Below, piece after piece: positions 22,981 to 42,113 of a DNA stretch of 64,000 nt. A model generated the notes under the pieces. The model did no database searches. It was not told the DNA's origin and saw nothing but the letters and a program-made list of their open reading frames with translations. A program made the translations under genes and the position numbers. How positions within the stretch are numbered: position 1 is the first letter of the stretch; every line of letters starts with the position of its first letter. Source of the stretch: Massariosphaeria phaeospora (taxonomy: Eukaryota; Ascomycota; Dothideomycetes; Pleosporales); the NCBI GenBank assembly GCA_011032825.1, contig JAADJZ010000024.1, positions 248,001-312,000 of the forward strand, in the 5' to 3' direction.

Positions 22981-23410
22981 TAACGTCGATCCCTGCGTGC
23001 CGAGACACCCTGCGTGCCGAGACGCGCCAGACACTCCCTAACATAACAAACTCAACAACAGGTTAGAAGAATAGATATTCTCGGAATAGTAGCCTTGAGT
23101 TATGGAGTCTATTCTCTCCTAATCTTCTGTAGAAGTAACTTCTGCTTACCGTGCAATACGATGAATTGGTATAAGCGTCACGCAACCGCCTCGCTTCAGC
23201 TAGCAGTAGGTGCGTTAAGGGCTCATGTATCTTTTCAAAAATTCGTCAATCTACAGCTTGTTATATTATTATCCTATTCCGAGATTTCTGCTCGTGTTCA
23301 AGACGCTCGCGCGCTTCTGCGCTGGTTCTGACTGCGCCTGCTGGAATTGATAGACGAGAACGATCCGAGCATCCGGCTTCAACTAGCTTAGCTGTAATTT
23401 ATCAGCGCCG
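22981..23410 (+). repeat. dispersed non-coding repeat, copy A
   Basis: Begins TAACGTCGATCCCTGCGTGC and shares with copy B (28931) and, inverted, copy C (near 37246) a common order of blocks: a GAGACACCCTGCGT core, ATAGATATTCTCGG, CTTACCGTGCAATACG, ATAAGCGTC, CAGCTTGTTAT and a TCC(G)AG..GCG block. The copies are diverged and hold no long frame, so this looks like an old, decayed transposon or a non-autonomous element. It sits just downstream of the DUF6601-like gene on the outer side of the NLR island. The far end is approximate. Confidence 0.65.
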
Positions 23411-23592
23411 CACGGCGTTTGCATCATGATTCATGTTAGGCTAGCTGAACTCCAGACTCGGTCGAAGCATGACTCGAACGCCTCAATCGGCCAGCGGACT
23501 TTCTTTGTATGGCAGACTGGCTGACTACCTAACTTACCTATATTACGTGTCATAAGAACTCCCACAGATAAATAATTATATATTGACTATAA

Positions 23593-24696
23593 CTATGCTT
23601 GATTACCACGATTCGCATTGACGCTAATCTTCCCTCGATGCTTAAAGCCCCACGACAACTGCCAGACAAGTACACCTGCGGGGATGACAAACAATAGTAT
23701 CCAGACTAAACCCGAAAGTAGCAACATCATGACTGAGAATATCCAGAATGCCCGTCTCATTGCTGCAAGTGAAGAAGCACCTATGCCGCTAAAGCCTAAC
23801 CCTTCTTCAGGAACTGAGACTAAGACTTGCATAGCTGATAAAACTAAGGACAAGCTAGCAAAGCCAAATATAAATGGCGCTATCGCTCGCTCAACATACA
23901 TGCCTGTTGACCAAAATGGAAGCTCATAGAACCATAATGTTGTAGCAGACGAAGGACGGAATAGGCGAACCGCCCAATCCAATCTCGAAAGACGAAGCTG
24001 GCCGTAGTGATATCGATTCGCGACCTCCTCGTCCTCAATATGTCGAAAAGATGCGATGAACTTAGACCACTCCTCCCACGTAAAGTCGGTTGGAAAGAGG
24101 TGGAATTCGCACGCGAGGACGAAGTCTACGTGATGACGCACAAGTAAGGCGTACGATCGCATGAAACCTAGTGCAACCTTTCGGTCATATGTTGGCTGGG
24201 AAGAGCGTTGTTGTGACACAGAGCTACCCGCGGGTGGAATAATCTCCTCAGCCGGGTTTGGAAGATAGGTCGTCCAGAAGTCGAAGTTGAGCAGACACAG
24301 TGGCATAGGCTTGATATATATTTTGTTGCGGTGCCAAACCAGATGCAGACGAATATCCTCCGCTGCGACGATCTCCCTCGTCTTCACTCTTTGTTTGTTC
24401 AGCGGGTCAACATTTTTGCCAGACTTTCGGGCAACAAGCCAAAGGTGGTTGTAAAGCTCGTCGAGAAGAGTTGTGTCAAGCTGTGAGCTCAGAAAGTCGC
24501 ATACGCTGGCCTCTCTGAGGTCTATGCCGGGTTCGCCAGGGATGTGGTCGATGGACGTATTCGAGTCATCTTGCGGTGGAGAAGGTGCCCGTCCGTCGGC
24601 GCTTGCTGCGGAGTATAAGCGCTGCTTTGCGAGTGCACTTGGTCTAGGGAAGAGAGACGAGAGAGGATGCCGGCTAGCTATGGATGGTTTCGACAT
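23593..24696 (-). CDS. DUF6601-like membrane protein, NLR partner copy 1
   Basis: A single exon of 367 residues. The first 70 residues are basic and disordered. The conserved core starts near residue 70 (LDELYNHLWLVARKSGK) and includes REIVAAEDIRLHLVWHRNKI, YIKPMPLCLLNFDFW, LGFMRSYALLVRHHVDF, the YHYGQLRLSRLDW block and RLFRP. The C-terminal third has two or three membrane spans (FIFGFASLSLVLSAMQVLV; FWIFSVMMLLLSGLVWILL running into VIPAGVLVWQL). The core matches the fungal family I recall as DUF6601, whose function is unknown. It is divergent from the NLR at 25027 with a 330-base gap, and a homologous pair lies in mirror orientation at 35.1 kb, which suggests that the two proteins work together. 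Confidence 0.8.
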   Translation of the reverse strand: MSKPSIASRHPLSSLFPRPSALAKQRLYSAASADGRAPSPPQDDSNTSIDHIPGEPGIDLREASVCDFLSSQLDTTLLDELYNHLWLVARKSGKNVDPLNKQRVKTREIVAAEDIRLHLVWHRNKIYIKPMPLCLLNFDFWTTYLPNPAEEIIPPAGSSVSQQRSSQPTYDRKVALGFMRSYALLVRHHVDFVLACEFHLFPTDFTWEEWSKFIASFRHIEDEEVANRYHYGQLRLSRLDWAVRLFRPSSATTLWFYELPFWSTGMYVERAIAPFIFGFASLSLVLSAMQVLVSVPEEGLGFSGIGASSLAAMRRAFWIFSVMMLLLSGLVWILLFVIPAGVLVWQLSWGFKHRGKISVNANRGNQA

Positions 24697-25026
24697 TTAA
24701 AAGCTCTAAGAATAGATGTGTGTGTAGCCGTTGAGAACAAGAGTTGAGAACAAAGAACGGGTGTGTTTCTGAACAGTTTTTCAGCGTCAGCCGCCACAGC
24801 GTCAGCGGCGACCCTCAGCCGCAGCTGGCCTCAGCCTCGCGCCTAGACGACACGTTGCTTCATCACTGCACGCGCTGTATGCTACTCTCTCTTTACTCTG
24901 CTACCTGCACTACATCTCTGCGACTTGACTAAGTTCTCGTTAAGCTTGAAAATCACATAATCAACAAGCGCCCGCTCCCCACCAGACCCGCTTCCCCGCT
25001 CCGACTAAGCCGCACAGACGCTAGCC
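24697..25026. promoter_or_regulatory. divergent promoter region of NLR pair 1
   Basis: Exactly 330 bases separate the DUF6601-like start (-) from the NLR start (+). It contains repeated CAGCGTCAG / CCTCAGCC-like words at 24780-24840 and a pyrimidine-rich run toward the NLR. The second pair has a gap of the same length. One region driving both genes would allow joint expression. Confidence 0.5.
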
Positions 25027-28000
25027 ATGGCAATATACGCAACAACCACGCTGTGCCTGTGCACCGGCGTCGCACTAGCTGTGCTCTACAACTGGAGTAC
25101 AAAGGGGATCCCGTCGCGACTGCGAGCGGGAGAGGCGCCTCAGAGCGCGTCTGGCTTCGTCAGAGCTGACATGTTCAGCGTGCTCGACAAACCCGCACGT
25201 GCTTACGGGATTGAGCAAGTCCACGCAGCTTATGGGCTCGGAACACACTAACTAGCATCTAGCATTATCTTCGTACACGGCCTCGGCTCAAACCCTGACA
25301 CGACGTGGGGATCTAGAGACAGCAACTGGGTCAACGACTTCCTCCCCCAGGATATTCCTGCAGCCTTCCAGAAGGAGATCCGAGTCTTCTTTTATAATTA
25401 CGACTCATACTGGAAGAGAGATGCTTTGCAGACACGCCTGTGGAGGCTCGGAAGGAGCCTGCTCGATGGCATGTGCTCGCAGATTCGGAGCACAGAGGAG
25501 GTTGGTGCGCGTGCTGCACCTGGCTAGAGCAGATCGCTGACGCTTGTGCTTAGGAGCAGACGCGCAGTCTTATCTTTGTCGGCCACAGCTATGGGGGCCT
25601 TGTTATTAAGCGGGTAGGGCAAATCTTGGCTGCGCAAAGAACGTCTCATTCCACCCTTGCACGACGCTTACTAATACATGTACAACAACGACTGACTACA
25701 GCAGGCAATCATCCTAGCTAACCAGGACCCAGCCTTTACTCATGTTGCTGAACACACGAGAGGCATTGTTTTCTTAGGCACGCCGCACCGAGGATCGAGC
25801 TTCAGCTGGTGGGGCAGCCTAGCCGCACGAGCGCTGGGGCCACTCAGATCAAACCCGTCGCTTCTGCAAGAAGTCGAGTATGACGCGCTCCCTCTTCTTG
25901 AATTGCAGGATGAGTTCGAAAGAGTAAGGAGCGATAAGTTTCAAGTAGTCAACTTCTTTGAGCAGCGCAAGACGCGACTTGTCAAAGTGTGGCTCTTCCA
26001 GTGGGAAAAATTTGTAAGCAAGCTACCAGCAGCTAGAGAGGCAGATGCTAATGTATACGCAGTGCGTTCGGGAGCAGTCAGCGACTTACAGCCGCGTCGA
26101 GAATATTGGCCTTTCTGTCGACCACTACGGCCTTAACAAGTTCCAATCGAAGGATGATAATTATCACAGCATTCTTAGGAAGATTCTTAGCTTGATTGAG
26201 CCTATTGCAGCGCAGAAGCAGCGCCGGCTCTACTCAGTCCCTATCAACACGGTCGATACATATACGGAGCGGCCGAAGCTGTCTGCTGCAGTCGCTAAAG
26301 GTCTGCGCGTGCGCCACGAGAAGGCCAGCGTTCCGTATGCGCTTGCCATCCACGGGCTTGGCGGCACGGGCAAGACGCAGCTGGCGATGAAGTATGTTGA
26401 AGATCACAAAGACGAGTACAGCCCAATCCTCTGGATCGATGCCAAGGACAAGGATTCTGTGCTATCAAGCTACGAGCGATGCGCGCGTGAGCTGCAGCTC
26501 GAGATTGATGATAGACAGCCGCCAAACACTAGCCTTGTGAACTCACCAACCGTGCAAGCAGTGCTCCGATGGCTCGAGGACCGGAAGAGGATAGACGACG
26601 CCTGGCTGGTGTTCGTCGACAATGCCGATGATCTTACTTGGGGAATCAAGGAAGTGCTCCCAAAAGGACATCGAGGAAGTATTATCATCACTAGTCAGGA
26701 CAACAAAGCTCGAAGGCTAGTAGATGGAGGCTGCGAAGCAGTGTGCGTGGACGCGATGGAGCCGTTAGAAGCACGAAGGCTTCTTCTTCAAAAAATTGAG
26801 TTAGACGAAGCTTCGGTGTCAGATCACGTCAAGCACGACTGTGACAGAGTGGCAGGGCAGCTCGGGCACTTGGCTCTTGCTCTTGACCTCGCCGGAGCTT
26901 ACATTCTTGAGGATGACACCGGCCCAACACGAGCTTTACCACGATATCTGCAAAGGTTGGCTCACCACAAAGAAAGTGTACTGAGGGACGAAGACTCTCG
27001 TGGGATCGCGCGGAGCGAGAAAACAGTATGGACGGTGTGGAACATGACGCTTGAGAGGATCGATGCTTTGGAGAAGCTCGAGAATCTCGAGAATCCTCAC
27101 CTAGGTCTACCAGCACGTTTACTGCTTGCTTTCCTCGCTCGATTCAGAGGCACAGTTATACAGGACGAGCTGTTTCGGCTGGCGAGCGCTGCGGTGCTAG
27201 AGACCCGTCACGCGCTGTACGATGGGGCGGAGCTACCGAGCTGGCTTAGTGATGCCCTTACACTTACAGGAACGAACGAATGGGACGACTACTTTTATGA
27301 ACAGACTCGAAATCGACTCGTTCGGTTCAGCCTCTTGCAACGCACTAGGGGCGAGTGGCCAGGGGTGTCGATGCACGGGCTGGTTCAATGGCGAGCAACA
27401 AAGTACGAGGCGGAGCAGCCGTGGGAGAAGTGTTATCTCATAACAGTACTGGCAGCATGTGCACAACTGTCTAAAGAGACAGCTAGACCTCACTTCCGAA
27501 GAGAACTTGTCGCGCAGCTTCCTAGCATGGAAACGAAGTACCTAAGTGACCTAGGGATAAAGGACAAGGACAAAGGCTTTGCGTGGCATACAGTCAGCAC
27601 GGTGTACTTCTATGAGGGACGGTCAAAAGAGGCTGAAGAGCTGGACGTGCAAGTGATGGAGACGAGCTTGAGGGTGCTTGGCAAGGAGCATCCCTCTACG
27701 CTAACCAGCATAGCCAACCTAGCGTCGACGTTTTGGAATCAAGGGCGGTGGAAGGAGGCTGAAGAGCTAGACGTGCAAGTGATGGAGACGAGAAAGAGGG
27801 TGCTTGGCAAGGAGCATCCCTCTACGCTGACCAGCATGGCCAACCTAGCGTCAACGTACAGGAATCAAGGGCGGTGGAAGGAGGCTGAAGAGCTGGAGGT
27901 GCAAGTGATGGAGACGAGGAAGAGAGTGCTTGGGGAGGAGCATCCTTCCACACTGAGCAGCACAGCTAACCTAGCGTTAACGTACAGGGATCAAGGCCAA

Positions 28001-28897
28001 TGGGAGGAGGCCGAAGCGCTGTTTGTGCAAACAATGGAGATAAGAAAGAGGGTGCTTGGGGAGGAGCACCCTTCTACGCTGACCAGCATGGCCAACCTGG
28101 CGTCGACGTACAGGAATCAAGGGCGGTGGAAGGAGGCTGAAGAGCTGGACGTGCAAGTGATGGAGACAAGAAAGAGTGTGCTTGGCAAGGAGCATCCCGA
28201 CACGCTGACCAGCATGGCCAACCTAGCGTCGACGTTTTGGAATCAAGGGCGGTGGAAGGAGGCTGAAGAGCTAGACGTGCAAGTGATGGAGACGAGCTTG
28301 AGGGTGCTTGGCAAGGAGCATCCCTCTACGCTAACCAGCATAGCCAACCTAGCGTCGACGTTTTGGAATCAAGGGCGGTGGAAGGAGGCTGAAGAGCTGG
28401 AGGTGCAAGTGATGGAGACGAGCTCGAGGGTGCTTGGCAAGGAGCATCCCGACACGCTGACCAGCATGGCCAACCTAGCGTCAACGTACAGGAATCAAGG
28501 GCGGTGGAAGGAGGCTGAAGAGCTGGACGTGCAAGTGATGGAGACGAGCTTGAGGGTGCTTGGCAAGGAGCATCCCTCTACGCTAACCAGCATAGCCAAC
28601 CTAGCGTCGACGTTTTGGAATCAAGGGCGGTGGAAGGAGGCTGAAGAGCTAGACGTGCAAGTGATGGAGACGAGAAAGAGGGTGCTTGGCAAGGAACATC
28701 CCGACACGCTGGCCAGCATGAACAATCTCGCCTTTACTTTGAGAGACCGAAGCCGAAACCAAGAAGCCCTCTCTTTACTAGAAACATGCTTTCAGCTGTG
28801 CAAAAATATCCTTGGCGAACAACATCCGCACACAAAATCGGTACACGGCACATTAGGTAAATGGCGGGCAGAGAATAATAGCAAGATAAATCTATAA
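25027..28897 (+). CDS. NLR 1: membrane helix, alpha/beta hydrolase, NB-ARC, TPR
   Basis: Five exons (25027-25214, 25263-25500, 25554-25613, 25705-26013, 26063-28897) give 1209 residues. Order of domains: an N-terminal hydrophobic helix (residues 5-22); an alpha/beta hydrolase of the SERAC1/DUF676 type, residues about 60-260 (VHGLGSNPDTTWG, nucleophile elbow FVGHSYGG, FLGTPHRGSS); NB-ARC with P-loop GLGGTGKTQ near 363 and Walker B WLVFVDNADD near 448; then eight intact 42-residue kinesin-light-chain-like TPRs (about 780-1190). Intron 1 is a GC-AG intron (GCAAGT..CTAG); the homologous intron of NLR 2 has GT. Such STAND proteins act in fungal nonself recognition, opening or oligomerising on ligand binding to trigger the N-terminal effector. 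The ligand is unknown. Confidence 0.88.
27620..28740 (+). repeat. 126-bp TPR-coding tandem repeats of NLR 1
   Basis: About eight consecutive 126-base units code for LGxEHPxTLTSMANLAST-type TPRs. Blocks such as NQGRWKEAEELDVQVMET recur with almost no DNA change, even at silent sites, and units alternate between two versions (FWNQGRW and YRNQGRW). This pattern means recent expansion or conversion of units rather than old duplication. Unit 3 (YRDQGQWEEAEALFVQ) is the most different and is matched by a unit in NLR 2. Confidence 0.9.
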
Positions 28898-28930
28898 TGT
28901 CGTCTTAACGTTAGTCTGTAGTATACAAAG

Positions 28931-29355
28931 TAACGTCCGTCCCTCCGTAGCGGGACACCCTGCGTAACGGGACGCTACAGAGACTCTCCAACATAACAAA
29001 TTCAACAACAGGCTAGAATTATAGATATTCTCGGAATAGTGGCCCTAAGCTATAACGCTTATTCTCTCTTAACTTCTTTTAAAAATTCATTTGGCTTACC
29101 GTGCAATACGGCAATTTGCTATAAGCGTCGCGCAGCTGCCTTGCTTTAGCTAGCAGTAGATGCGTCGCAAGCTCATGCACCTCATTAAAAATCCTTTAAC
29201 GTACAGCTTGTTATACCACCATCCTATCCCGAGCGCTGCGCATGAGCTTGAGAGGTAGTCGTGCGGATGTGCTAAATGCAAGACCGCCCGCCAGACGTGC
29301 CACAGAGGGAGAACCCGCAATCTCAGCTTAAAGCAGGTTAGCGGTAATCTATCGC
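28931..29355 (+). repeat. dispersed non-coding repeat, copy B
   Basis: Begins TAACGTCCGTCCCTCCGTAG and carries the same ordered blocks as copy A, in the same orientation (CGGGACACCCTGCGTAACGG, ATAGATATTCTCGGAATAGT, GGCTTACCGTGCAATACGGC, CTAGCAGTAGATGCGTC, TACAGCTTGTTATACC). It lies between the two convergent NLR genes at the centre of the mirrored island. No coding capacity. The right boundary is approximate. Confidence 0.65.
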
Positions 29356-29753
29356 TGCTGACGCTACTTCGTACGTCTGTGGCCGTGTGGCTGAGTAGCT
29401 GTGCGACGCTTTTGCCAAGTGCTTTAGGACGCCCGAACACTGGCTCGGATTGGGAGCAGGACGAGGTTTGAAGGCCCTGGTGTAATTTTAGCTCATGTTC
29501 ACAAACACACCCAGCAACGAAAGCCTAACCACCTTCTAATACAGCCATCGTGCAACTTCGAGATCATAGCAAGGTCATGGCGAGAGCAGGTCAGCCATCC
29601 TCTCGGTGGCGGTGGCAACTCAAAGTACTGCTCACGTACTCTGCATCTCATGATGTTTAGTAAGCGAACTACTGCGCACACGCTATGCTATCTTGGTAAT
29701 ATGTTAGCTTGCTACTTTACCGCTGTCGCGATCTGCTCTTACGACGGAGTGCT
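29356..29753. other. spacer downstream of both NLR genes
   Basis: No gene or clear repeat. It is bounded by the decayed repeat and the stop of NLR 2. Confidence 0.4.
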
Positions 29754-32700
29754 CTACTCGCTAACTTCCGTTGCCTCTAGTTGCCATGCCGCAAGCGTTG
29801 CCTTGGACGATACGGTGTGAGGGTGAAGAGAGCCCAGGACTTCATCTTGTAGTCTATAGCAGTCCTGCATCAGAACAAATGCCTCCTTCACCTTTCCTAG
29901 GGCTATGAACGTAAATGCGAGGTTGTTCATGCTGGTCAGCGTGTCTGGATGCTCATTGCCAAGCACCCTCTTTCTCGTCTCTATCACTTGCACGTCTAGC
30001 TCTTCAGCCTCCTTCCACCGCCCTTGATTCCTGTACGTCGACGCTAGGTTGGCCATGCTAGCCAGCGTAGAGGGATGCTCCTTGCCAAGCACCCTCAAGC
30101 TCGTCTCCATCACTTGCACGTCTAGCTCTTCAGCCTCCTTCCACCGCCCTTGATTCCTGTACGTCGACGCTAGGTTGGCCATGCTAGCCAGCGTAGAGGG
30201 ATGCTCCTTGCTAAGCACCCTCAAGCTCGTCTCTATCACTTGCACGTCTAGCTCTTCAGCCTCCTTCCACCGCCCTTGATTCCTGTACGTCGACGCCAGG
30301 TTGGCCATGCTGGTCAGCGTAGAGGGATGCTCCTTGCCAAGCACTCTCTTTCTCGTCTCTATCACTTGCACGTCTAGCTCTTCAGCCTCCTTCCACCGCC
30401 CTTGATTCCTGTACGTCGACGCCAGGTTGGCCATGCTGGTCAGCGTAGAAGGGTGCTCCTCCCCAAGCACCCTCTTTCTTATCTCCATTGTTTGCACAAA
30501 CAGCGCTTCGGCCTCCTCCCATTGGCCTTGATCCCTGTACGTTAACGCTAGGTTAGCTGTGCTGCTCAGTGTGGAAGGATGCTCCTCCCCAAGCACTCTC
30601 TTCCTCGTATCCATTACGTGCACCTCCAGCGCTTCAGCCTCCTTCCATCGGCCTTGATCCCTGTACATCGACGCCAGGTTGGCCATGCTGGTGAGATTTG
30701 AAGAATGATCCGGTCCAAGCATCTTTCCGTAGCTTTGAAGTGCCCGTTGATACATCATCTCCGCCTCGTGAAGGCGTCCTAGATCTGCGTAAAGAAGGCC
30801 CAAGTTGTTGACCGCGGATAGTGTTGACGGATGGTCCGGTCCAAGCATCTTTTCGTAGCCTTGAAGTGCCCGTTGATACATCATCTCCGCCTCGTGAAGG
30901 CGTCCTAGATCTGCGTAAAGAAGGCCCAAGTTGTTGACCGCGGATAGTGTTGACGGATGGTCCGGTCCAAGCATCTTTTCGTAGCCTTGAAGTGCCCGTT
31001 GATACATCATCTCCGCCTCGTGAAGGCGTCCTAGATCTGCGTAAAGAAGGCCCAAGTTGTTGACCGCGGATAGTGTTGACGGATGGTCCGGTCCAAGCAT
31101 CTTTTCGTAGCCTTGAAGTGCCCGTTGATACATCATCTCCGCCTCGTGAAGGCGTCCTAGATCTGCGTAAAGAAGGCCCAAGTTGTTGACAGTGTCAAGT
31201 GTCGATGTGTGGTCGGTTCCTAATGCCCTCTCCTCACTATGCAGCGCTCGCTGAAACATCTTCTCCGCATCGCCGTACTTCCCCTGCTGAGCAAATAAAT
31301 ATCCGAGGGAATGTATAGCCCGTGCTCTGCCATCATCATCCAGCAGTCCGTCCTGAATAAATGACCAGCATCTAGCTGCGTGCCGAAGAAGCCGCCGTTG
31401 AATCGCGAAGGAGTCAGGACTGTCCCCGACTGGTATATGTGACACCACACATTCTAGGGCAAGTCCCGCCATGTCGACTTTCCACCTTTTATTTAGGACA
31501 TGTACGGTCCACATGTGCGCAATGCTGTGCAATCCGTATCCTCCCGACTCAATAGCATCGTCTGTAGGCATGTTCACCTTCACTAGACCGTAGTCCAACA
31601 ACAACGTTACCTCTCGGTTGAAACTCGACTCATCCTCCGTCAACTGACAAAGCCAATTCGGACCATGAGAGCTCCCTTTTTGTAGAAGTTCTAGCCATAA
31701 ATCTTGGCTGTCAAAGTACGCCCATAGTTGAAGGAGCTGCGCAGAAAGCTCGCTCTCTTGCCTAATGCGTTCGAATGAGAGCTGCAAAGTCGACGTCGAT
31801 GTTCGATCCATGTACGGCACTACTCCAAGACTTGTTTGTTGGAGCCGCAACCATGTTGCTTTGTAAAGATGCAGATAATCCGCAAAGCTAATCCCGACAT
31901 GGCAGATGTACGCTCCTGCATTGGCTAATGCTTGCGGAAGTCCATGTAACTGTTTGGCAAGCTCGGCCGCATTAGGATCTTGAAGAATGATTAGCTTTGT
32001 ATCAGTACGCAGAGTAAAAACCTCACCGTTTATTGCGGTCTTACGGAGTGATGTATCAGAGAGGACTTCCAGGCTGTCGGATATATCTAGATTCTGAACC
32101 TGAATTCGGCAGCCGATCTTGGCAGTTGATGACCTGGTTGTGATGATGACTGATCCATGATTTGCTTCTGGGAGAAACCAGCGAATACCCTTCGCAGTAC
32201 GATGATCGGATTGATCGCAGATCATCAACCATCGTGTATTCCGAGGATGATTTAGCCATCGTTTGACTGCCGTCATGATCTCATCTTCCTCACCCCCTGT
32301 GGTGATCTTGCCAAACTGAGAGGCCGAAGGATGCTCCTGCACAATTTTCTTCGCGATTCTTGCGTAGCTCATTTTCGCTGAATCCTCCGACCCAGCGTCC
32401 AGCCAGAAGACACCAGAAGAATTGGCGCTGTAGCATTCGGTATAAGTGGTTGCGAGCTGGGTCTTACCAATGCCACCTACGCCGTAAAGGACAACAATCC
32501 CACGTCCATCTGCATCGCTCAGTGTCTTATGGATGTGATATAGCTGTTCTTGTCTGATGTAGTGAACCCTGTTGAATGTTCTTTGCATAAAAAGCCTCGT
32601 CTTTGCTCCGACCTTGTTCCGGTCTAGCCAAGCTTGCGCCATTTCTGGTACGTGTACCAGGAGATGTCGGCGGAATCGAAGACTTTCAAACTTCTGAGGA

Positions 32701-35112
32701 AGTTTATGGCATGCAGCCAGAACAAATAGGGAATGCAACCACTCCCATCTTTCACTTTTATTGTATTGCATTGCGCGCCACTTGACCAGACTGTGCATTG
32801 TGACCCCAGGCCACTCTCCATCCACGCGCTGCGCAAGGTTGTAGCGAACCAGCAAGTCACGGCTCTGTCGATAGGAAAAGCTGTCCCATTCCATACCATC
32901 TAGTGTAAGGAATTGGCGGAAGTCGCTCGGGAGTTTATGCTCTTGGTCTCCGAATTCGTGATAAACTTCGGCCATTCCAAGGCTAGCTAGGCGGAATATC
33001 TCGTCCTGCACAATGCTACCACGAAACCGTGCTAGCAAGGCAAGGAGCAGGCCCGGTCGTAGACCTGCATGGCGCTCCTCGATCTTCTCAAGCGTTGTGT
33101 CCCATACAGTCCACACCGTCTTATCGCTCGCCGACAATCCGCGGAAATGCTCACTCCGTAGAAGATCGTCTTGGTGTTTCTCGTAGTCTGCTAGGTACTG
33201 GCGAAGAGCTTGCTTCTGGTCTGCATCGTTGCTAATGTATGCTCCAGCAAGGTCCACGGCAAGAGCTAGATATCCAAGCTGCTCTGCTATCTTGCCGCAG
33301 TCTTGCTGAATGTCCTCTGGCACTGCAGTGGGATTTAGTCCCAAGTGTCGAAGAAGAAGCTCCTGCGCTTCAAGCGGCTCCATCGTGTCTATGTGCAGCC
33401 CTTCACAGCCCCCACCTACCAGCTTCCGAGACTGTCTGTCTTGGCTAGTAATGATAATGCTTCCACAATCCCCATTCGGGAGTACCTTCTTGATCCCCCA
33501 CGAAATATCGTCTGCATTGTCGAGACTCACCAGCCACGGGTCGTCTGTCTCTTTTCGGCCACGAAGCCATCGGAGCACAGCCTGCACGGTTGGCGAATCT
33601 AGGAGACTAGAGCCTTGGTTCTGCGTCCGGTCTATCGAGAGTTGGAGCTGGCTCGCGCACCGCTCGAAACTCGACCGCACAGAGTCCTCGTCTTTGGCGT
33701 CGATCCAGAGGATAGGACTGTATTCGTCCTTGTGGTCATCTACATACTTTAGCGCTAGCTGGGTCTTCCCCGTGCCACCAAGTCCGTAGATGGCAAGCGC
33801 ATGAGGAACAGTGGCATCTCGATGACGCACGCGCAGCCTCTCCTCGACTGCAGCAGATAGCGTAGGCCGCTCCGTATAGCTGTCTACCGTGCTAACGGGC
33901 ACCGAGTAGAACCGCTCCTGCTTCTGCAGTGCGATAGGCGTGATTGTCTCAATAAGCTTTCCAAGGATAATCTTGTAGTTCTCGTTCTTCGAACTGAACT
34001 TGTTCAGGCCGTAATGGTCGACAGGAAGGCCGACGTTCTCTACCTTGCTGTACTTCGCTGATTGCTCCCGAACGCACTGCATCTACCTTTAGCGTATTAC
34101 CCTTGATTGGCAATGGCCAGCTTACCCATTCTTCCCACTGGAGAAACCATAATTTGAGAATCCGCGTCTTGCGCTGCTCAAAGAAGTTGACTACCCGCAG
34201 CTTGCCACTGAAAACGTTTTCGAACTCTTCGTGAAGATCTAGAAGGGAAAGAGAGTCGTACACCACTTCCTGGAGCAGTGATGGGTTTGAACCAAGTGGC
34301 TGCAACGCTCGGGCAGCGATGCCTCCCCATGTACTAAAGCTGGAACCACGGTGAGGCGTGCCTAGAAAGAAAACGGCTCTTGTGTGCTCGGCCACGGTGG
34401 CAAACAGCTGATTTGTGCTTGCCTGGATGAGCGCCTACTACGGTCAGCCCTCGTAGACGCGCCGACGACGCGTGTCCAGGGAGGCTAGGATGCGTTCAAC
34501 TCGAAGAAAAGAGATATCCCTACCCGCTTGATGACAAGACCTCCATAGCTGTGTCCGACGAATACTAGATTCCGCGTCCGCTCCTACCAAACATGTGTTA
34601 GCCGTTCGCTCTAGCAGGGGCAATAGGCGACCCAACCTGTTCTGTTCCCCGGATCTCCGAAGTGATGCGGTCTAGCAAGCTCTTCCCAAGGCTCCATAGC
34701 CGCCCCTGCACAGCATCCCTCTTCCAGTACGTATCGTAGTTGTAGAAGAAGATGCGGGTGTCTCTGTGGAACGCGGCGGGGATGTCTTCGGAGAGGAAGT
34801 CGCTGACCCAGCATCTGCCGTCTCTCGGGCCCCACGTTGTATCAGGGTTCGATCCAAGGCCGTGGACAAAGATGATACTGGGGGCATAGTTCAGTGCATG
34901 TCCTATACAAGTCGCCGGGCGATGTGAACCTACTCGATCCCCCCCGCGCGTCCACGCGATTCGAGCTTGTCTGCCCTGACAAGACCGAATTCACTCTTTG
35001 GCGCCTCTTCTGCTCGCAGCCGCGACGGGATTCGCTTCGTGAACTGATCGTAGAGCACGGCGACCGATGCGAGGAGGATGCAGAGGTAGAGCGCGATCCA
35101 CAGTCGATCCAT
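29754..35112 (-). CDS. NLR 2: membrane helix, hydrolase, two NB-ARC domains, two TPR types
   Basis: Five exons (35112-34934, 34877-34637, 34583-34524, 34434-34126, 34076-29754) give 1703 residues. Exons 3 and 4 are the same length as in NLR 1 (60 and 309 bases). Order: N-terminal membrane helix (residues 5-21), SERAC1/DUF676-like hydrolase (VHGLGSNPDTTWG, FVGHSYGG, FLGTPHRGSS), NB-ARC 1 with P-loop GLGGTGKTQ near 361, a hinge, then a second, different NB-ARC with P-loop GVGGIGKTQ near 795 and its own LHGLPQALANAGAYI motif. Next come four NNLGLLYADLGRLHEAE TPRs and about seven TPRs of the NLR 1 type. It reads as one receptor inserted into another. The whole frame is open, so the gene is probably functional. 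Confidence 0.88.
29890..31260 (-). repeat. 126-bp TPR-coding repeats of NLR 2, two classes
   Basis: At 30695-31230 four units code for the LGPDHPSTLSAVNNLGLLY class; three consecutive units have a period of exactly 126 bases (the same word recurs at 30821, 30947 and 31073) and read as identical DNA. At 29890-30695 about seven units of the MANLASTYRNQGRWKEAEE class follow, near-identical to those of NLR 1. Identity between genes in opposite orientation suggests recent gene conversion or duplication. Confidence 0.9.
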
Positions 35113-35442
35113 CGTCTCCTCTACCTACCTACCGGCGTGGCCCGATCCGAGCTCTGGGTTACCGGTAGCCTGGCAGTGGCGCACGTCAACCGGGAGCGCA
35201 GAATGTCTGGGTACCGCAAAAGAATTCGTGAGATGGTGTGCTCAGGTTGCAGTGCAGGAGTGGAGGATCACAACAGCAGGTAATATCTCTTTTGATGATT
35301 GTCAGGCTGGCTGAACAGGCAGGCTGCGGCTGAGCTGGTCTTGGCAGGACAGGGCAGGCGTGCTGCTTCTGCGCCCCCAGCTGACAACGGCCAGTTTCCG
35401 CAAACGTCAAATACAGTACCATCACGATTTCCGAGTCCCATT
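35113..35442. promoter_or_regulatory. divergent promoter region of NLR pair 2
   Basis: Also exactly 330 bases from the NLR start (-) to the ATG of the DUF6601-like copy (+). The sequence has diverged from the gap of pair 1, with only short shared CAG/CTG-rich words. The equal spacing supports a mirrored duplication of the whole two-gene module. Confidence 0.5.
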
Positions 35443-36512
35443 ATGAGAGACCTGCCCTTCTCTAAGTCGGCTGCCCTTTCTAAGCATTGTCTTACTCCTC
35501 AATCGAATCTTGGCCAACCAAGTCTTCGCCAGAAGCCTCCTGCAACCGCGAAGAGTCCAGACGAGGCTAACGTATCACCTACATCCCCGGCGAACCTAGC
35601 ATAGACCTCAATAAGACTGCGGTGCACGGCTTCCTCTCATCAGAACTTAGTACGCCGTTCCTCGATGAGCTCTACGACAACCTTTGGCTCGTTGCGCGAA
35701 AGGATGGCAAGATCATCGATCCTCTGCACAGGCAAAAGATCAAAGCAAGGGAGATTGTTGCAACAGAAGATGCGAAGCTGCATCTCGTGTGGCACTACGA
35801 TAAAATATACATCAAGCCGATGCCACTTTGTCTGCTGAACCACGACTTCTGGACAATGTACCTCTTATTGCCGGCCGACAGCACCTCCTCAAACCAGGAA
35901 GCCTCCGCTATTCCAGCTCCTCCCACCCCATCTTTCGATCGGACGATTGCGCTAGGCTTCATGAGGTCGTACGCCTTGCTTGTGCGGCACCACGTGGATT
36001 TTATCCTGGCTCGCGAATCCCATCGTTTCCCCGCCGACCTTGACTGGGTCGAATGGTCCGAGTTCATCGCCAATTTTCGGACCCTAGAGGATGAAGACGT
36101 TGCAAAGCGCTTCCACTATGGGCAGCTCCGCCTTTCGCGATTAAATTGGGCAGTCCGTTTGTATCGCCCTTCGCACGCAACGACTTGGTGGTTCTACGAT
36201 ATCCCTCACTGGTCAACAGCTATGTATGTGGAGTGGGTAGTTGGACCACTGCTCTTTGGCTTCGCCAGCTTGTCTTTGGTTCTGTCATCTATGCAAGTTT
36301 TGCTGTCGATCCCAGATGAAGGGCTAGGATTCCGCCGCGTAGATGCTTCATCGCTTGCAGACATGAGACGAGCTTCTTGGGTATTTTCTGTTATGATGTT
36401 GTTATCGTCGGGATTTGTCTGGTTGTTACTCATCGCCATCCCATGTAGTGCTCTTATCTGGCAGCTCGCATGGGGCTTCAAGAACAAAAGAAAACCCAAA
36501 CTGAAACCCTAG
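35443..36512 (+). pseudogene. DUF6601-like membrane protein copy 2, frameshifted
   Basis: Homologue of the gene at 23593-24696. The ATG at 35443 opens a 53-codon frame with the expected basic N-terminus (PFSKSAALSKHCL). The conserved part (YIPGEPSIDLNKTAV, FLSSELSTPFLDELYDNLW, REIVATEDAKLHLVWHYDKI, HYGQLRLSRLNWAVRLYRP, two or three C-terminal membrane spans) lies in another frame that is open from 35571 to 36512 but has a TAA at 35568 and no early ATG. The two frames meet near 35568-35575, so a one- or two-base indel separates them. No sensible intron fits: a GTATCA..CTAG stretch would be only 28 bases. It may be a recent pseudogene or a sequence error; the long intact second frame suggests recent loss. 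Confidence 0.75.
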
Positions 36513-36819: not shown

Positions 36820-37246
36820 TATATAACAGCTAGTCTGCTTTAAGCGACGTGCTCGCATTCTGCTATTCTGCCTATTCCAGCACGCAGGCTTAGAACCAGC
36901 ATAGAAGCACAGCAGCATCTCGTAGTCAAGCGCAACTCTCGGGATACGTCTGCTATGTACTAAGCTACAAGCTGACGGACTTGTGTCAGAATACGTTGGA
37001 TATTAAAGCACCTAGTGCGGACTAAAGCGCAATAGTTGCGCGACGCTCGCAGCACATCGTTAAATTGCACGGTAAGCACAGCGTATACTTGAGCGACACT
37101 TAGCACAGAGGCAGTTTACAGGTCCAAGATGTTATACCGAGAATATCTATGGCTCTGGCTTTTCGTAGAGTGTATTGCGTTGAGAAGCAGTGCTAGCGTC
37201 TCGCTACGCAGGGTGTCTCGCCACGTAGGGACGGACATTACACGTT
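36820..37246 (-). repeat. dispersed non-coding repeat, copy C (inverted)
   Basis: Read on the minus strand from 37246 it begins TAATGTCCGTCCCTACGTGG and follows the block order of copies A and B (GAGACACCCTGCGTAGCGAG, CATAGATATTCTCGGTATA, GCTTACCGTGCAAT, CAGCTTGTA, TATCCCGAGAGTTGCGC, CTTAAAGCAGACTAGCTG). It is inverted relative to copy A, matching the mirror symmetry of the gene pairs, and bounds the NLR island on the right. The inner boundary is approximate. Confidence 0.6.
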
Positions 37247-37805
37247 CTTTTCATGTGTAATGAGACATCCCGGATTCTATACTTACCTTTATGTATTTCA
37301 AAGTTCAAAAGAAACCATAATACATGTTCGAATTAAATATGTTACAGCTACAAAATTACGGAGGTCTTGGGGAGCCGTTACGGCGTTACCCCGCCCTGAC
37401 ACTATGAGATGAACGCCAACCATGGATGCTTGTAACTAATCTTTGTGGGTGTCAATGATGTTTGGGGGAAGGGACTGGGATTGGGTGGGTTCTGTGGTTG
37501 TTACCATCAGCAGTTCTTACCTTGCAAACCGTTTGTGGTTGGCTGGAGATGATATACTTTGTATTCTGGGACCCCGTGTTTTATCGTTGATGTACTTTAT
37601 CGTCGCTTGAGCTGCGTGAAGCAGCTTTTCACGTTCTCATTTTTTTCTAGTAAGTAGCTATGAACCCAACCAGCCAGCGCCGAAGGCCTGGACGTTGCAA
37701 GTGGTCGAATGGAACGGGCAATTATGTTTTCCATAATTTCGAACATCTTCACTGACTATTGTCTCAGCATTGCAATAACCTCCGTGGAACACGCCTCCGA
37801 CAAAG
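37247..37805. other. intergenic, promoter side of the DUF7587-like gene
   Basis: AT-rich beside the repeat, then a pyrimidine-rich leader before the ATG at 37806. No gene was seen. Confidence 0.45.
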
Positions 37806-39121
37806 ATGGAACAAGAGAACGAGACACCGACGGCCACGGTTTTCCAGCCTCAGGGCAGTTTTGAAGATCTGGTTGAGCATTTCGATTCGATCCCCCACTA
37901 CCTGTTCCGCACCTCCTCGCCTCAATCCGCAGGCAACACTACCGAGACTTATATCGAATCAGAGGCAGTAAAACTCAACCTTGATCAGAGGGATCTGCTA
38001 AGACTGGACCGCGCCAAAGCCGTCGCAATGCTCAGGAACCATCTGCTCTGGTCGAAGAATCACCGTTCTGATAATCTCATCTCGTGGACCAGCTCTTTTC
38101 TGTTTGCGGTGCAGCATGGCATTCGGCGACAGGCCACTGGCCATCCCTATCAAGAGTTTAGTGAGATAAAGATATCGATCCTGGATACGCGGAAGGTGCC
38201 CCGAGGGACCTTCCTGCCCGCCGTTGCGCTGCTCAATGCGTACGGTTTCAAGAGCCAGGGCAGGCTGGCACACAAGTACTACTGCGGGGAGTATTTGTCG
38301 CAGGGCAGGTTGGATCTGGGCGGCGAGCGCGGGATCATGGAAACGACGACGTTGGAATCATTCATCAACCACGGCCTCTTTGAACTGTATCCGCCGTTTG
38401 CGGACAAGAATTACGAAACACTACTTTGTTCTCGTGTGCTCCAGCTGCGAGAGGTATTCAGGAGCCCACCGGAAGTGCCCAATTCCGAAGAAATAAGCCT
38501 GGCACAGAGCATTTCTGTGGGCTGTTTTCTCGATATGAGCATGCGGCCTGTTGTCATGATGACCCTGTTGTCGCTCAAACCTCGATTCCGCTTAGACACG
38601 GCCATTTTGGCGGCCTTTAGAGACAACTGCTGGGGTATATATTATACATCTGCCCCAGATGCTTGGTCCGTGGAGCTGATGTGCTAGCAGGAACATTCGT
38701 AGCAGATCACAGCCTGGATTGCTACAAGGCGACTTCAGACCAAGTTCCCGAGCACAAGCAGCTCACGGACATGATGCACGATGTGCATGCCGACACGCAA
38801 CGAAAGCGGCAACTCGACCGTACCAGAGCCCAATGGCTTAAAGAAAAAGGAACTGACTTGTGTCAAATTGAAGCCCTGGCTGATTCAATCGGTCCGTCTC
38901 CTTTGCAGAATCAAGTTTTCCATATACTGAACAGCTCACCATGGAACCTAGCTGGAGAAAGCGGAAGTGACTCACGTATTAATAGCGATGCGTCCGACTT
39001 TCCAGAAAAAGTATGTAGTGTTAGTCGGGAGGAAGGGCGAAGAAGACTACGACTCGTGCGGATAGCCCTGCACGCACGACTGCACGACGTGGATGTCTTA
39101 ATGAACGAAGTAGCTTGTTGA
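37806..39121 (+). CDS. DUF7587-like protein
   Basis: Two exons (37806-38634, 38688-39121) joined over a 53-base GTATAT..CTAG intron in phase 1 give 420 residues. The segment at residues about 25-50 (IPHYLFRTSSPQSAG) followed by SWTSSFLFAVQHGI and KISILDTRKVPRGTF has the layout of the fungal DUF7587 family: a short fold reading x-LFR-xx-P, then a toxin-ADP-ribosyl-like strand order, function unknown. The region RLAHKYYCGEYLSQG is consistent with the core. The C-terminus is charged and helical. Members are common in accessory parts of fungal genomes, and this one lies between the NLR island and a transposon. The domain call is from memory of the family pattern. Confidence 0.65.
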
Positions 39122-39832: not shown

Positions 39833-39834
39833 TA

Positions 39835-39894
39835 CCGGTACCGTGTCCGTGCGCGTGATGCGCCGGTTCGCGTGATGCGCCACCCTCATCAAAA
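39835..39894 (+). repeat. left terminal inverted repeat
   Basis: The 60-bp repeat contains the 12-base word GCGTGATGCGCC twice, separated by GGTTC. Such subterminal direct repeats are probable transposase binding sites. It ends CTCATCAAAA. Confidence 0.9.
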
Positions 39895-39992: not shown

Positions 39993-41852
39993 CTACTTAT
40001 ATTTATCTGGAAGCTTGACGCTGCGGCCGCGACGCGTTAGAATAGCTGGGGCAGCAGATACGCCCTCTGAGGCCTCCGCAGCATCTCTAGTATCAACGCT
40101 ACGTTTGCAACGCTTTTTGCTCTGTAGAGATAGCTGCGGAGCCTTCCTCTTACCCTTCTGTGAAGATTGTAGAGCTTTTGTAGCGTCGCGAGCCTCCTTC
40201 TGGCGAGCGCGTTCTGCTGCCTTTTCTGCCTTCTCCTTCTCCTTCGCTACCTTAGCTGCCTCTCGCGCTACACGCTTCTCCTCTGCAATTTTCTCCTTGT
40301 ACAGCTTAGCTGCCTTCCTTAGCTCTGCTGTCTCTGCTTTTTGAAGTTGCTGCTCCTGATTTTCCTGCTCCTTGATTGACTGACGAACACGTGCCTCCCT
40401 CACCTTCCTTGGTGACCAGAAGATAGCCCCACCATGATACTCCTGGCGCTGTTGAAGGTCTAGAGCTTTGCTCTTCTTCTTACGCTTCTTCTTAATAGAT
40501 AGAGCCTGCTTAAGCCCATCCATCTCATGCTTGAGTAGGTCATTTTGGACAGATAGGTGGTGGAGCGATTGACGAAGCTTCTGTGTATCCTTACTACTCT
40601 GATCACTTGCTACAGAGCGTACAAGCCTATCCATCTTTCTCCAATCATAATCGCTAAGTGATGATAAGGAGCTTTCTCTTGATTCTTGAGCTTTGGTGAA
40701 TCTATTGAGGATAGGATTAGGATTAGGAGGTGATATGCCTGTTGCTCTAAAAGAGCTAAAGATTGTTGATTCTTTAAAGGACGTCTCCCATGCCTTCCAG
40801 AATAGTAGGAAGAAGTCGCCTTTGGTAATAGAAAGGAGGCCTTGGCTTGTTTGAAGGTAGTTTGACAGTTCTACTGAGTAGGCGGTTGATAGAGGCTTGA
40901 ACATCGCTACATCGAGTGGCTGAAGCGTATGAGTCGAATGAGGAGGTAGGATAGCAAGGAGAATCTTGTTCTGATCACAGTAGTCGATAAAATCCATGGT
41001 AATATGGGATCCGTGGCCATCTAGGATCAGAAGTCGATAGGACCGTCGGGTCTTCTGTCTTGTACAACGATCAAACACCTGCTCAAGCCAGGCTAGTCCA
41101 ATATCGTTGTTCGTCCAGCCAGAGGGTGATGAGGTGATAAAGACTAGGTGTTCTCCTGCCTGGATATCGTCTACCCAGCTTGATTGAATGCCCTTGTTGG
41201 CAGCTTCATAGATAAGGCTTGGAGGTAGAGCAGATCCATCAGCGCATATACATGCTAGAAGCGTGATCCATGCGCGATTACCATCTTGGAGTGATGCTCT
41301 AACCTCCTTGTTCTCCCACATTTGCCTACTGAATACTCTTTTTGATCTACTAATGATACCAATTAGGAAGCCTTTCTCATCCATATTGTAGATATGACGA
41401 GAATCTATCTGATATTGCTCAATCTTGCTGTGTAGTAGATGAAAATAGAGGCGATATTTATCCTCTAAATCAGCTTTGTGGCGATTGCTGTCCATCCCAG
41501 ATGTCCATTGTAAGATAAGGTAATCGCTCTGTCGGCTGATGAAGCGGGTAACCCAGCTCTCGCTAACTGGCTCCTTGGCTATTCTGGAGGCGAAATTCTG
41601 TATCATCTTTCTTGTAGGTGGCGAGTGTCTCTCTGTAAGTCCTTTTATATATCGTATAAGCTCCTGCTCTTGTTGTGGGCTGAGTTTCTGCTGTTTAAAG
41701 TTCTTCGCCTCTAGGGCGCGCGTTATCCCTCGATGCCTTCGGGTCAACGTGGATCGTACAACACCATGCTTAGCAGCAATCTTTCTATAGGAGAAATCTT
41801 TGCCAGGTCCTAGGGATTCTATCTCTTCAAGTGCGTCGTCTATTGGAGCCAT
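39993..41852 (-). CDS. DDE transposase, pogo/Fot1 type
   Basis: A single uninterrupted frame of 619 residues. The N-terminus holds a psq-type helix-turn-helix (DFSYRKIAAKHGVVRSTLTR, residues about 19-38) and a CENP-B-like second DNA-binding part (HSPPTRKMIQNFASRIA, then WVTRFISR). The catalytic DDE_1 domain shows all three acidic positions: YNMDEKGF (first Asp), LLILDGHGSH (second Asp) and HTLQPLDVAMFKPL (third Asp). The C-terminus is a Lys/Arg/Glu-rich coiled coil with strong nuclear-localisation character. No stop or frameshift is seen, so the enzyme is probably functional. It lies inside the 60-bp inverted repeats. Confidence 0.92.
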   Translation of the reverse strand: MAPIDDALEEIESLGPGKDFSYRKIAAKHGVVRSTLTRRHRGITRALEAKNFKQQKLSPQQEQELIRYIKGLTERHSPPTRKMIQNFASRIAKEPVSESWVTRFISRQSDYLILQWTSGMDSNRHKADLEDKYRLYFHLLHSKIEQYQIDSRHIYNMDEKGFLIGIISRSKRVFSRQMWENKEVRASLQDGNRAWITLLACICADGSALPPSLIYEAANKGIQSSWVDDIQAGEHLVFITSSPSGWTNNDIGLAWLEQVFDRCTRQKTRRSYRLLILDGHGSHITMDFIDYCDQNKILLAILPPHSTHTLQPLDVAMFKPLSTAYSVELSNYLQTSQGLLSITKGDFFLLFWKAWETSFKESTIFSSFRATGISPPNPNPILNRFTKAQESRESSLSSLSDYDWRKMDRLVRSVASDQSSKDTQKLRQSLHHLSVQNDLLKHEMDGLKQALSIKKKRKKKSKALDLQQRQEYHGGAIFWSPRKVREARVRQSIKEQENQEQQLQKAETAELRKAAKLYKEKIAEEKRVAREAAKVAKEKEKAEKAAERARQKEARDATKALQSSQKGKRKAPQLSLQSKKRCKRSVDTRDAAEASEGVSAAPAILTRRGRSVKLPDKYK

Positions 41853-41887
41853 ATTGGTAGAATTATCGCGTGTTGAACTTCTGTTGT

Positions 41888-41947
41888 TTTTGATGAGGGT
41901 GGCGCATCACGCGAACCGGCGCATCACGCGCACGGACACGGTACCGG
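41888..41947 (-). repeat. right terminal inverted repeat
   Basis: Reverse complement of the left 60-bp repeat, without visible difference, including both GCGTGATGCGCC words. A TA follows at 41948. Confidence 0.9.
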
Positions 41948-42113
41948 TAGGGTCGTTACGCAAGCGAGAGAACCCGTCATCAACAGTCAACAGAGAACAA
42001 CGTGAAGCCAACCTCCATAACCATCGACACAAGCGAAGGACCTCTTTGATATTAGGCTTCATCTTCCGTACGGATCCGTCAGCTGAATGAACTATACAAG
42101 AGAAAGCGATAAG

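What the first reader, a model, noticed from the sequence alone, without database searches (positions are those of the whole stretch)
23593..36512. Mirrored two-gene module: NLR plus DUF6601-like membrane protein
Two divergent pairs, each a DUF6601-like membrane protein and a hydrolase/NB-ARC/TPR receptor, stand in opposite orientation. Both pairs have a start-to-start gap of exactly 330 bases, and NLR exons 3 and 4 are the same length in both (60 and 309 bases). Receptor and partner kept together through a duplication suggests that they form one functional unit, comparable in idea to the HET-S/NWD2 and HELLP/SBP/PNT1 gene clusters of fungi. I know of no described NLR-DUF6601 pairing. The link is inferred from gene order.
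Basis: partly seen in the sequence, partly recalled or inferred. Interest (0 to 1): 0.86.

Follow-up and report, generated by a model that had tools for sequence, protein, structure and literature searches.

The report
Mobile-looking NLR and membrane-protein gene pairs
A fungal genome repeatedly carries, back to back, a gene for an immune-type receptor with a lipase-like front end and a gene for a predicted membrane protein of unknown function, and because related gene pairs recur in distant fungi the two proteins likely work together, probably in the self/non-self or defence responses for which such receptors are known.

Summary
In detail: two divergent pairs (DUF6601 membrane protein; hydrolase/NB-ARC/TPR receptor) stand mirrored at 23593-36512. 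In the same genome (Massariosphaeria phaeospora), 4 of 5 full-length DUF6601 domains stand head-to-head with a hydrolase-STAND receptor; two of those receptors are NACHT-ankyrin, not NB-ARC-TPR, so the pairing follows the N-terminal hydrolase. In other fungi, 4 of 9 DUF6601 proteins with serial locus tags carry the tag next to such a receptor, and 7 of 7 long DUF6601 models found by that domain (query included) also hold NB-ARC. DUF6601 and hydrolase diverge in step (r = 0.96, 12 pairs). Not supported: a local duplication (the pairs are old, separate lineages), meaning in the equal 330-base gaps, or a HET-S-type shared motif; the second DUF6601 gene is frame-broken. New: pair 2 lies between inverted terminal repeats; these ends occur at 11 places in the genome, 8 with a STAND gene within 8 kb inward (6 by family cut-off), 1 outward. 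Best reading: a two-gene NLR module with a dedicated membrane partner, here carried in transposon-like cassettes. Mechanism inferred.

The parts
22981..23474 (+). Terminal repeat left of pair 1, outer end at 22981, pointing inward (inner limit approximate)
   Evidence: 0 mismatches to the 35-nt end pattern; 301 of 425 columns identical to the middle copy
23593..24696 (-). MP1: DUF6601 protein, 367 aa, intact, globular N domain then two predicted membrane helices
   Evidence: PF20246 E 3.5e-75; AlphaFold2 mean pLDDT 81, helices 264-294 and 307-352
24697..25026 (.). 330-base shared spacer of pair 1
   Evidence: sequence; little similarity to spacer 2
25027..28897 (+). NLR1: exons 25027-25214, 25263-25500, 25554-25613, 25705-26013, 26063-28897; N-terminal membrane-helix-like segment, alpha/beta hydrolase (GHSYGG), NB-ARC, TPR; 1209 aa
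   Evidence: 1034 aa identical to BDV95DRAFT_598272 (P0134), whose public model matches only from residue 163 on and so lacks about half of the hydrolase
27629..28720 (+). TPR array of NLR1, 126-base units
   Evidence: shares a 233-base exact stretch with the NLR2 array, against 32 at most outside the arrays
28931..29366 (+). Terminal repeat between the pairs, outer end at 28931, 33 bases after the NLR1 stop; left end of the pair 2 cassette (inner limit approximate)
   Evidence: 0 mismatches to the end pattern
29754..35112 (-). NLR2: exons 35112-34934, 34877-34637, 34583-34524, 34434-34126, 34076-29754; hydrolase, NB-ARC (P-loop at 33785), second NB-ARC (P-loop at 32483), two TPR classes; 1703 aa
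29920..31190 (-). TPR arrays of NLR2 (29920-30692 NLR1-like; 30698-31190 a second repeat class)
35113..35442 (.). 330-base shared spacer of pair 2
35443..36512 (+). MP2: DUF6601 gene, start at 35443 in one frame, DUF6601 domain from about 35571 in another; frame-broken in this assembly
   Evidence: PF20246 E 1.7e-73; comparison with P0017, P0019, P0022
36743..37240 (-). Terminal repeat right of pair 2, outer end at 37240, pointing inward (inner limit approximate)
   Evidence: 0 mismatches to the end pattern

Best explanation
This is a two-gene NLR module, present at four places in this fungal genome, in which a receptor made of an N-terminal alpha/beta-hydrolase domain, a nucleotide-binding switch domain and TPR or ankyrin repeats stands head to head with a DUF6601 protein that has two predicted membrane helices, and the DUF6601 protein likely serves as the membrane partner through which the hydrolase would act once the receptor is triggered. 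Shown: the gene arrangement, its recurrence, and matched divergence of the two proteins. Inferred: the repeats sense a non-self or stress cue; nucleotide-driven oligomerisation clusters the hydrolase at the membrane (9 of the 10 NB-ARC-type receptors compared also start with a membrane-helix-like segment); DUF6601 places, restrains or feeds substrate to that hydrolase there; the outcome is membrane damage and local cell death, as for other fungal NLRs with lipase-type front ends. The two window pairs probably came together as separate cassettes rather than by local duplication: pair 2 is enclosed by inverted terminal repeats and pair 1 has one such end.
Against: No interaction, expression or cell-death data. 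In the own genome at least 4 hydrolase-STAND genes have no DUF6601 nearby (C51:125627, C49:1118345, C51:1487418, C1:2356523), and one DUF6601 gene has no receptor (C45). MP2 is frame-broken here. The C16 hydrolase has Cys where the nucleophile Ser is expected, so catalysis may not be needed in all pairs. The C12 and C16 receptors lack the N-terminal membrane-like segment. Within the 10 NB-ARC pairs DUF6601 tracks NB-ARC as well as it tracks the hydrolase (0.831 and 0.835), so only the C12 and C16 pairs single out the hydrolase. Matched divergence is partly shared species history. The DUF6601 fold gave no significant PDB match, so its action is unknown. For 4 of the 8 foreign pairs only a shared contig is shown, three of those contigs over 1 Mb. 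Six of the 9 joined models were found through the receptor, and several may be gene-prediction merges; they then still show adjacency.
Confidence: 0.55

Rival explanations
1. Guard or decoy pair: the NLR watches its DUF6601 neighbour (or, through it, the core DUF6601 copy at C45), and altered or foreign DUF6601 triggers the receptor, as PLP-1 is thought to watch the SNARE SEC-9.
For: Linked NLR plus membrane-associated partner is the PLP-1/SEC-9 arrangement (PMC12881547, PMC11138114, passages). An unpaired DUF6601 copy lies among housekeeping-type genes and could be the guarded original. The two proteins diverge in step, and DUF6601 tracks NB-ARC as well as the hydrolase among the NB-ARC pairs.
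Against: The presumed sensor half (NB-ARC-TPR or NACHT-ankyrin) is exchanged between pairs while hydrolase and DUF6601 stay; a guarded protein would be expected to follow the sensor. One joined protein (P0222) has DUF6601 and hydrolase with no STAND domain detected, though its model may be incomplete.
Confidence: 0.22
2. DUF6601 is the executioner, a membrane-damaging protein switched on by the NLR, as HET-S is by NWD2.
For: Two predicted membrane helices in the listed relatives (118 of 120 two, 2 of 120 three); a long helical hairpin in the model; gene order as in HET-S/NWD2, where divergent and same-strand pairs and all-in-one proteins also occur (PMC3321046, passages).
Against: No HeLo domain, no shared terminal motif (14 comparisons, best reached by 5 of 200 shuffles), no significant fold match; the NLR already has an enzyme domain in the effector position; DUF6601 looks integral rather than recruited.
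Confidence: 0.13
3. Hitchhiking: the genes stay together only because they share a promoter or ride in the same mobile cassettes, without working together.
For: Pair 2 is enclosed by terminal inverted repeats and pair 1 has one such end; DUF6601 occurs without NLR at C45.
Against: No such end was found near the C12 and C16 pairs; the link survives changes of orientation in other fungi and of the receptor's NTPase and repeats.
Confidence: 0.1

Closest known systems
HET-S/NWD2 and relatives (Podospora anserina and other fungi)
   Same: STAND receptor next to a membrane-acting partner gene; divergent in some species, same strand in others; alternative all-in-one proteins (PMC3321046, passages read)
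   Different: Partner is DUF6601, not HeLo; no shared amyloid-type motif found; the NLR N-terminus is a hydrolase, not a short prion-like stretch
[not shown]
   Same: NLR with a lipase-type N-terminal domain, NB-ARC and TPR, tied to a membrane-associated partner encoded nearby (PMC12881547, PMC11138114, passages)
   Different: Patatin there, sesB/SERAC1-like alpha/beta-hydrolase here; partner there a SNARE, here DUF6601; interaction shown there, untested here
sesA/sesB/het-eN locus (sigma element, Nectria haematococca)
   Same: An alpha/beta-hydrolase (sesB) gene beside a STAND gene (PMC3321046, passages)
   Different: There the hydrolase is a separate protein with a sigma motif; here it is the receptor's own N-terminus and the separate protein is DUF6601
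ToxhAT (Pleosporales)
   Same: TIR-bounded 14.3 kb unit carrying host genes, among them a Patatin-TPR gene called NLR family; no target site duplication found (PMC6737239, passages)
   Different: 74-bp TIRs and a hAT-like transposase gene there; here other ends, and no transposase could be assigned
Starship transposons
   Same: Known to carry HET/NACHT genes as cargo (PMC9594970, passages)
   Different: Starships are far larger (recalled) and carry a DUF3435 tyrosine recombinase; the units here are 7-16 kb with inverted ends; the captain gene was not searched for
Curvularia clavata KK-1 cluster flank, orf(-4)/orf(-3)
   Same: DUF6601 gene listed beside an NB-ARC-TPR gene (PMC10512319, table passage)
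   Different: Listed only; nothing about a pairing in the passage I saw; that DUF6601 model is 166 aa

Membership tests
Fungal NLR (STAND receptor) | N-terminal effector-type domain, NB-ARC or NACHT NTPase, superstructure-forming repeats | tested here: met
   Hydrolase, NB-ARC and TPR over cut-off, P-loops GLGGTGKT and GVGGIGKT; C12 and C16: NPHP3_N and ankyrin
sesB/SERAC1-like alpha/beta-hydrolase | DUF676-type domain with nucleophile elbow | tested here: met
   4 of 4 pass the DUF676 cut-off; GHSYGG in NLR1 and NLR2, GHSFGG in C12; C16 has AHCLGG, Cys in place of Ser
sesB/SERAC1-like alpha/beta-hydrolase | Lipase or esterase activity | not testable with these tools
   sequence only
DUF6601 (PF20246) | Match over the curated cut-off of 27 bits | tested here: met
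   253.3 and 247.7 bits
HET-S/NWD2-type amyloid-signalling pair | Partner gene beside the STAND gene | tested here: met
HET-S/NWD2-type amyloid-signalling pair | Motif shared between NLR N-terminus and partner terminus | tested here: not met
   14 terminal comparisons in 7 pairs by simple local alignment, lowest 5 of 200 shuffles; no dedicated motif profiles were run
HET-S/NWD2-type amyloid-signalling pair | HeLo or HeLo-like partner | tested here: not met
   only DUF6601 found in the partners
PLP-1/SEC-9 pair | Patatin N-terminus and SNARE partner | tested here: not met
PLP-1/SEC-9 pair | Physical interaction and death on mismatch | not testable with these tools
   needs bench work
TIR-type DNA transposon (the cassettes) | Inverted termini with a sharp outer boundary, several copies | tested here: met
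   11 ends, 0 for the reversed control; 33-45 of 45 identical inside (35 of these 45 were the search pattern), mean 6.3 of 25 outside
TIR-type DNA transposon (the cassettes) | Target site duplication | tested here: inconclusive
   all 11 ends begin TA, as the search pattern does, compatible with a TA duplication; no longer duplication seen at the inverted pairs
TIR-type DNA transposon (the cassettes) | Own transposase | tested here: inconclusive
   DDE_1 genes inside two elements and near one single end, but of three different families (36-39% identical) and not clearly more than expected (P 0.06); only DDE_1 was searched
Starship | DUF3435 tyrosine recombinase captain | not tested
   no search made

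The most novel reading that the evidence does not exclude
Fungal immune modules travel as cassettes: DUF6601 is the dedicated membrane partner of hydrolase-type NLRs across Pezizomycotina, and NLR genes with their partners (NLR-DUF6601 pairs, a hydrolase/NLR pair, a NACHT-ankyrin gene and a HET-NACHT-WD gene) are shipped around the genome, and perhaps between species, by one family of terminal-inverted-repeat elements that works as a portable allorecognition cartridge.
Probability: 0.35. Interest if true: 0.88.

Novelty: new variant of a known kind. Interest (0 to 1): 0.76.

Why it matters
Most fungal NLRs have no known partner or output (general knowledge). A recurring two-gene unit gives the family of unknown function DUF6601 a testable role, gives hydrolase-type NLRs a membrane partner to test, and offers ready gene pairs to delete or co-express. 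If the cassettes are mobile, they explain how unrelated lineages of the pair come to lie mirrored side by side and how allorecognition repertoires could spread.
Full report
Setting. The window is C17:248001-312000 of a 42.08 Mb fungal assembly. NLR1 is identical over 1034 aa to BDV95DRAFT_598272 of Massariosphaeria phaeospora, whose listed contig length, 664,330, equals that of C17. The public model matches only from residue 163 of my model on and so hides about half of the hydrolase domain.

The observation. Each DUF6601 gene is divergent from a receptor. Spliced models: NLR1 1209 aa, NLR2 1703 aa; exons 3 and 4 are 60 and 309 bases in both, and the other intron positions agree. Both receptors begin with a membrane-helix-like segment, then an alpha/beta-hydrolase with GHSYGG, NB-ARC and TPRs. 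NLR2 has a second NB-ARC unit and a second TPR class. The DUF6601 domain of MP2 and its start codon are in different frames near 35,570, where relatives read through.

Not a fresh duplication. MP1 and MP2 are 65% identical; MP1 is 95% identical to a Setomelanomma holmii protein (Phaeosphaeriaceae; M. phaeospora is unplaced in Pleosporales) and MP2 94.5% to P0017, a protein without a name. In a FastTree tree of 129 sequences their common ancestor spans 47 tips. The spacers show little similarity. The TPR arrays are the exception: 92% over 814 bases with a 233-base exact stretch, against 74% in the NB-ARC part and at most 32 exact bases outside the arrays, which points to gene conversion.

The pairing recurs in the same genome. 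PF20246 gave 6 places: 5 full-length, 1 fragment with a stop. Besides the two window pairs, C16:549334-550368 (-) faces a + strand gene with hydrolase, NPHP3_N and ankyrin repeats, and C12:1144110-1145210 (-) faces one with hydrolase, NPHP3_N/NACHT and ankyrin. The fifth copy, C45, lies among genes for a PI3-kinase, a ZGRF1-like protein, a BAR-SH3 protein and a NUDIX protein with no hydrolase match better than E 0.2 in 19 kb. The fragment at C24 has none better than E 0.8 in 20 kb. So 4 of 5 full-length domains (4 of 6 matches) are paired; one of the four is the frame-broken MP2. Hydrolase relatives occupy 13 places at E up to 0.01; at least 4 hydrolase-STAND genes are unpaired. Chance for 3 of 4 loci, window counted once, is about 1e-11 within 1 kb.

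The pairing recurs in other fungi. No fungal genome other than the own one could be searched, so I used locus tags. Of 120 listed DUF6601 proteins (280 found), 22 are NCBI-sourced and 9 of these have serial tags. Consecutive tags with a listed hydrolase-NLR (120 listed of 424): N0V90_011277/011276, M1816_004380/004381, M1816_005777/005776, BP5796_13136/13135, that is 4 of 9. For the other 5 of the 9, no receptor of the named species is among the listed 120, so they are untested. Four more share organism and contig length (Dothidotthia, Periconia, Aspergillus glaucus, Delitschia). Six of the 120 receptor hits carry PF20246 in the same model; a search for long proteins with the DUF6601 part of P0240 gave 7 of 7 with NB-ARC, the query and 3 known ones included, so 3 new; it did not find P0211 and P0222. 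In all, 9 joined models, from aspergilli (section Flavi, recalled), Phialophora, Xylaria and Chaetomium. Of the 6 scanned for order, DUF6601 is upstream in 5 and downstream in Phialophora. Several lack DUF6601's second helix or the receptor's first exon, so some may be merges of same-strand neighbours. Either way adjacency holds and orientation varies, as reported for HET-S/NWD2 (PMC3321046, passages). Curvularia clavata shows the same neighbours in a table (PMC10512319).

Matched divergence. Identity matrices of DUF6601 and hydrolase correlate at r = 0.96 over 12 separate pairs and 0.89 with 5 joined ones. Within 10 NB-ARC pairs r is 0.835, and DUF6601 versus NB-ARC 0.831, both as high as hydrolase versus NB-ARC inside one protein, 0.827. 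Shared species history contributes, but paralogous pairs within the genome behave alike in most cases: DUF6601/hydrolase identity is 0.65/0.66 for P1-P2, 0.31/0.33 for P1-C16, 0.27/0.24 for P1-C12, and less alike, 0.33/0.21, for C12-C16.

Mechanism. Because NTPase and repeats are exchanged between pairs while hydrolase and DUF6601 stay, DUF6601 most likely works with the hydrolase; this rests on the C12 and C16 pairs. Of 120 listed relatives 118 have two separate membrane-like windows and 2 have three. The model has a globular N domain and two long helices (pLDDT 81, pTM 0.71) with no significant fold match. Two helices would put its N domain and its tail on one side, and I infer that this is the side of the hydrolase. 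Restraint, substrate delivery and anchoring cannot be told apart.

Cassettes. A repeat lies left of pair 1, between the pairs and, inverted, right of pair 2. Its 35-nt end matches 11 places genome-wide with up to 3 mismatches and none for the reversed control. Inside the boundary 33-45 of 45 bases agree (35 of them by the search pattern); outside, 6.3 of 25 on average. Inverted pairs: C17:276931/285240 (pair 2, 8.3 kb), C49:1398354/1405515, C9:464317/476626, C5:81792/97868. Content: C49 a hydrolase gene divergent from a NACHT-type NLR (21 bits, under Pfam's cut-off); C9 a NACHT-ankyrin gene; next to the single C20 end a HET-NACHT gene followed by WD-like repeats read by eye. By the family searches (74 STAND matches) 6 of 11 ends have a STAND match within 8 kb inward and 1 of 11 outward, the latter being the middle end, whose outside is pair 1; with the weak C49 gene it is 8 of 11 inward. 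None was seen at C5 and C9:832054. Expected are 0.014 per 8 kb; 4 of 6 loci, C49 included, has P about 6e-7. All 11 ends begin with TA, as the pattern does; no transposase could be assigned. Small TIR units and Starships with NLR-type cargo are known (PMC6737239, PMC9594970, passages); a TIR family tied mainly to NLR genes was not in what I saw, and one search was made for it. No such end lies near the C12 and C16 pairs. Mobility is inferred from structure only.

Verdict. A new variant of a known kind: a recurring NLR two-gene module with a partner family that I found in no description.

Noticed in passing
window 22981, 28931, 37240; C49:1398354/1405515; C9:464317/476626; C5:81792/97868; C9:832054; C20:473435: 11 copies of a terminal-repeat end, 8 with a STAND gene within 8 kb inward (6 by family cut-off); a possible NLR-carrying mobile element family.
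   Followed up: partly
C20:474313-476658 (L037): HET-NACHT gene followed by WD-like repeats (read by eye), about 0.9 kb inside a terminal-repeat end; as far as I recall the architecture of the Podospora het-e/het-d allorecognition genes.
   Followed up: partly
27629-28720 and 29920-30692: TPR arrays of the two receptors share a 233-base exact stretch while the NB-ARC part is about 74% identical: likely gene conversion between inverted copies.
   Followed up: yes
29754-35112: NLR2 holds two NB-ARC units and two TPR classes in one open frame, as if two receptors were fused.
   Followed up: partly
23593-24696: MP1 is 95% identical to a Setomelanomma holmii protein although the fungi are not placed in the same family; transfer or trans-species retention is possible.
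   Followed up: no
35443-36512: The DUF6601 gene of pair 2 is frame-broken near 35,570, while NLR2 is open throughout.
   Followed up: yes
39996-41906: Open pogo-like transposase (DDE_1 and Tc5-type HTH, 637 aa) with 62-base perfect inverted repeats at 39833-39894 and 41888-41949; 5 other DDE_1 matches in the genome lie in stop-free frames of the same 637 aa.
   Followed up: partly
C17:227909-228577: Another NB-ARC match lies about 19 kb left of the window.
   Followed up: no
37782-38684: DUF7587 gene about 0.5 kb outside the right-hand terminal repeat.
   Followed up: no
C24:160098-160331 (L013, L014): DUF6601 fragment with a stop near a reverse transcriptase gene.
   Followed up: partly
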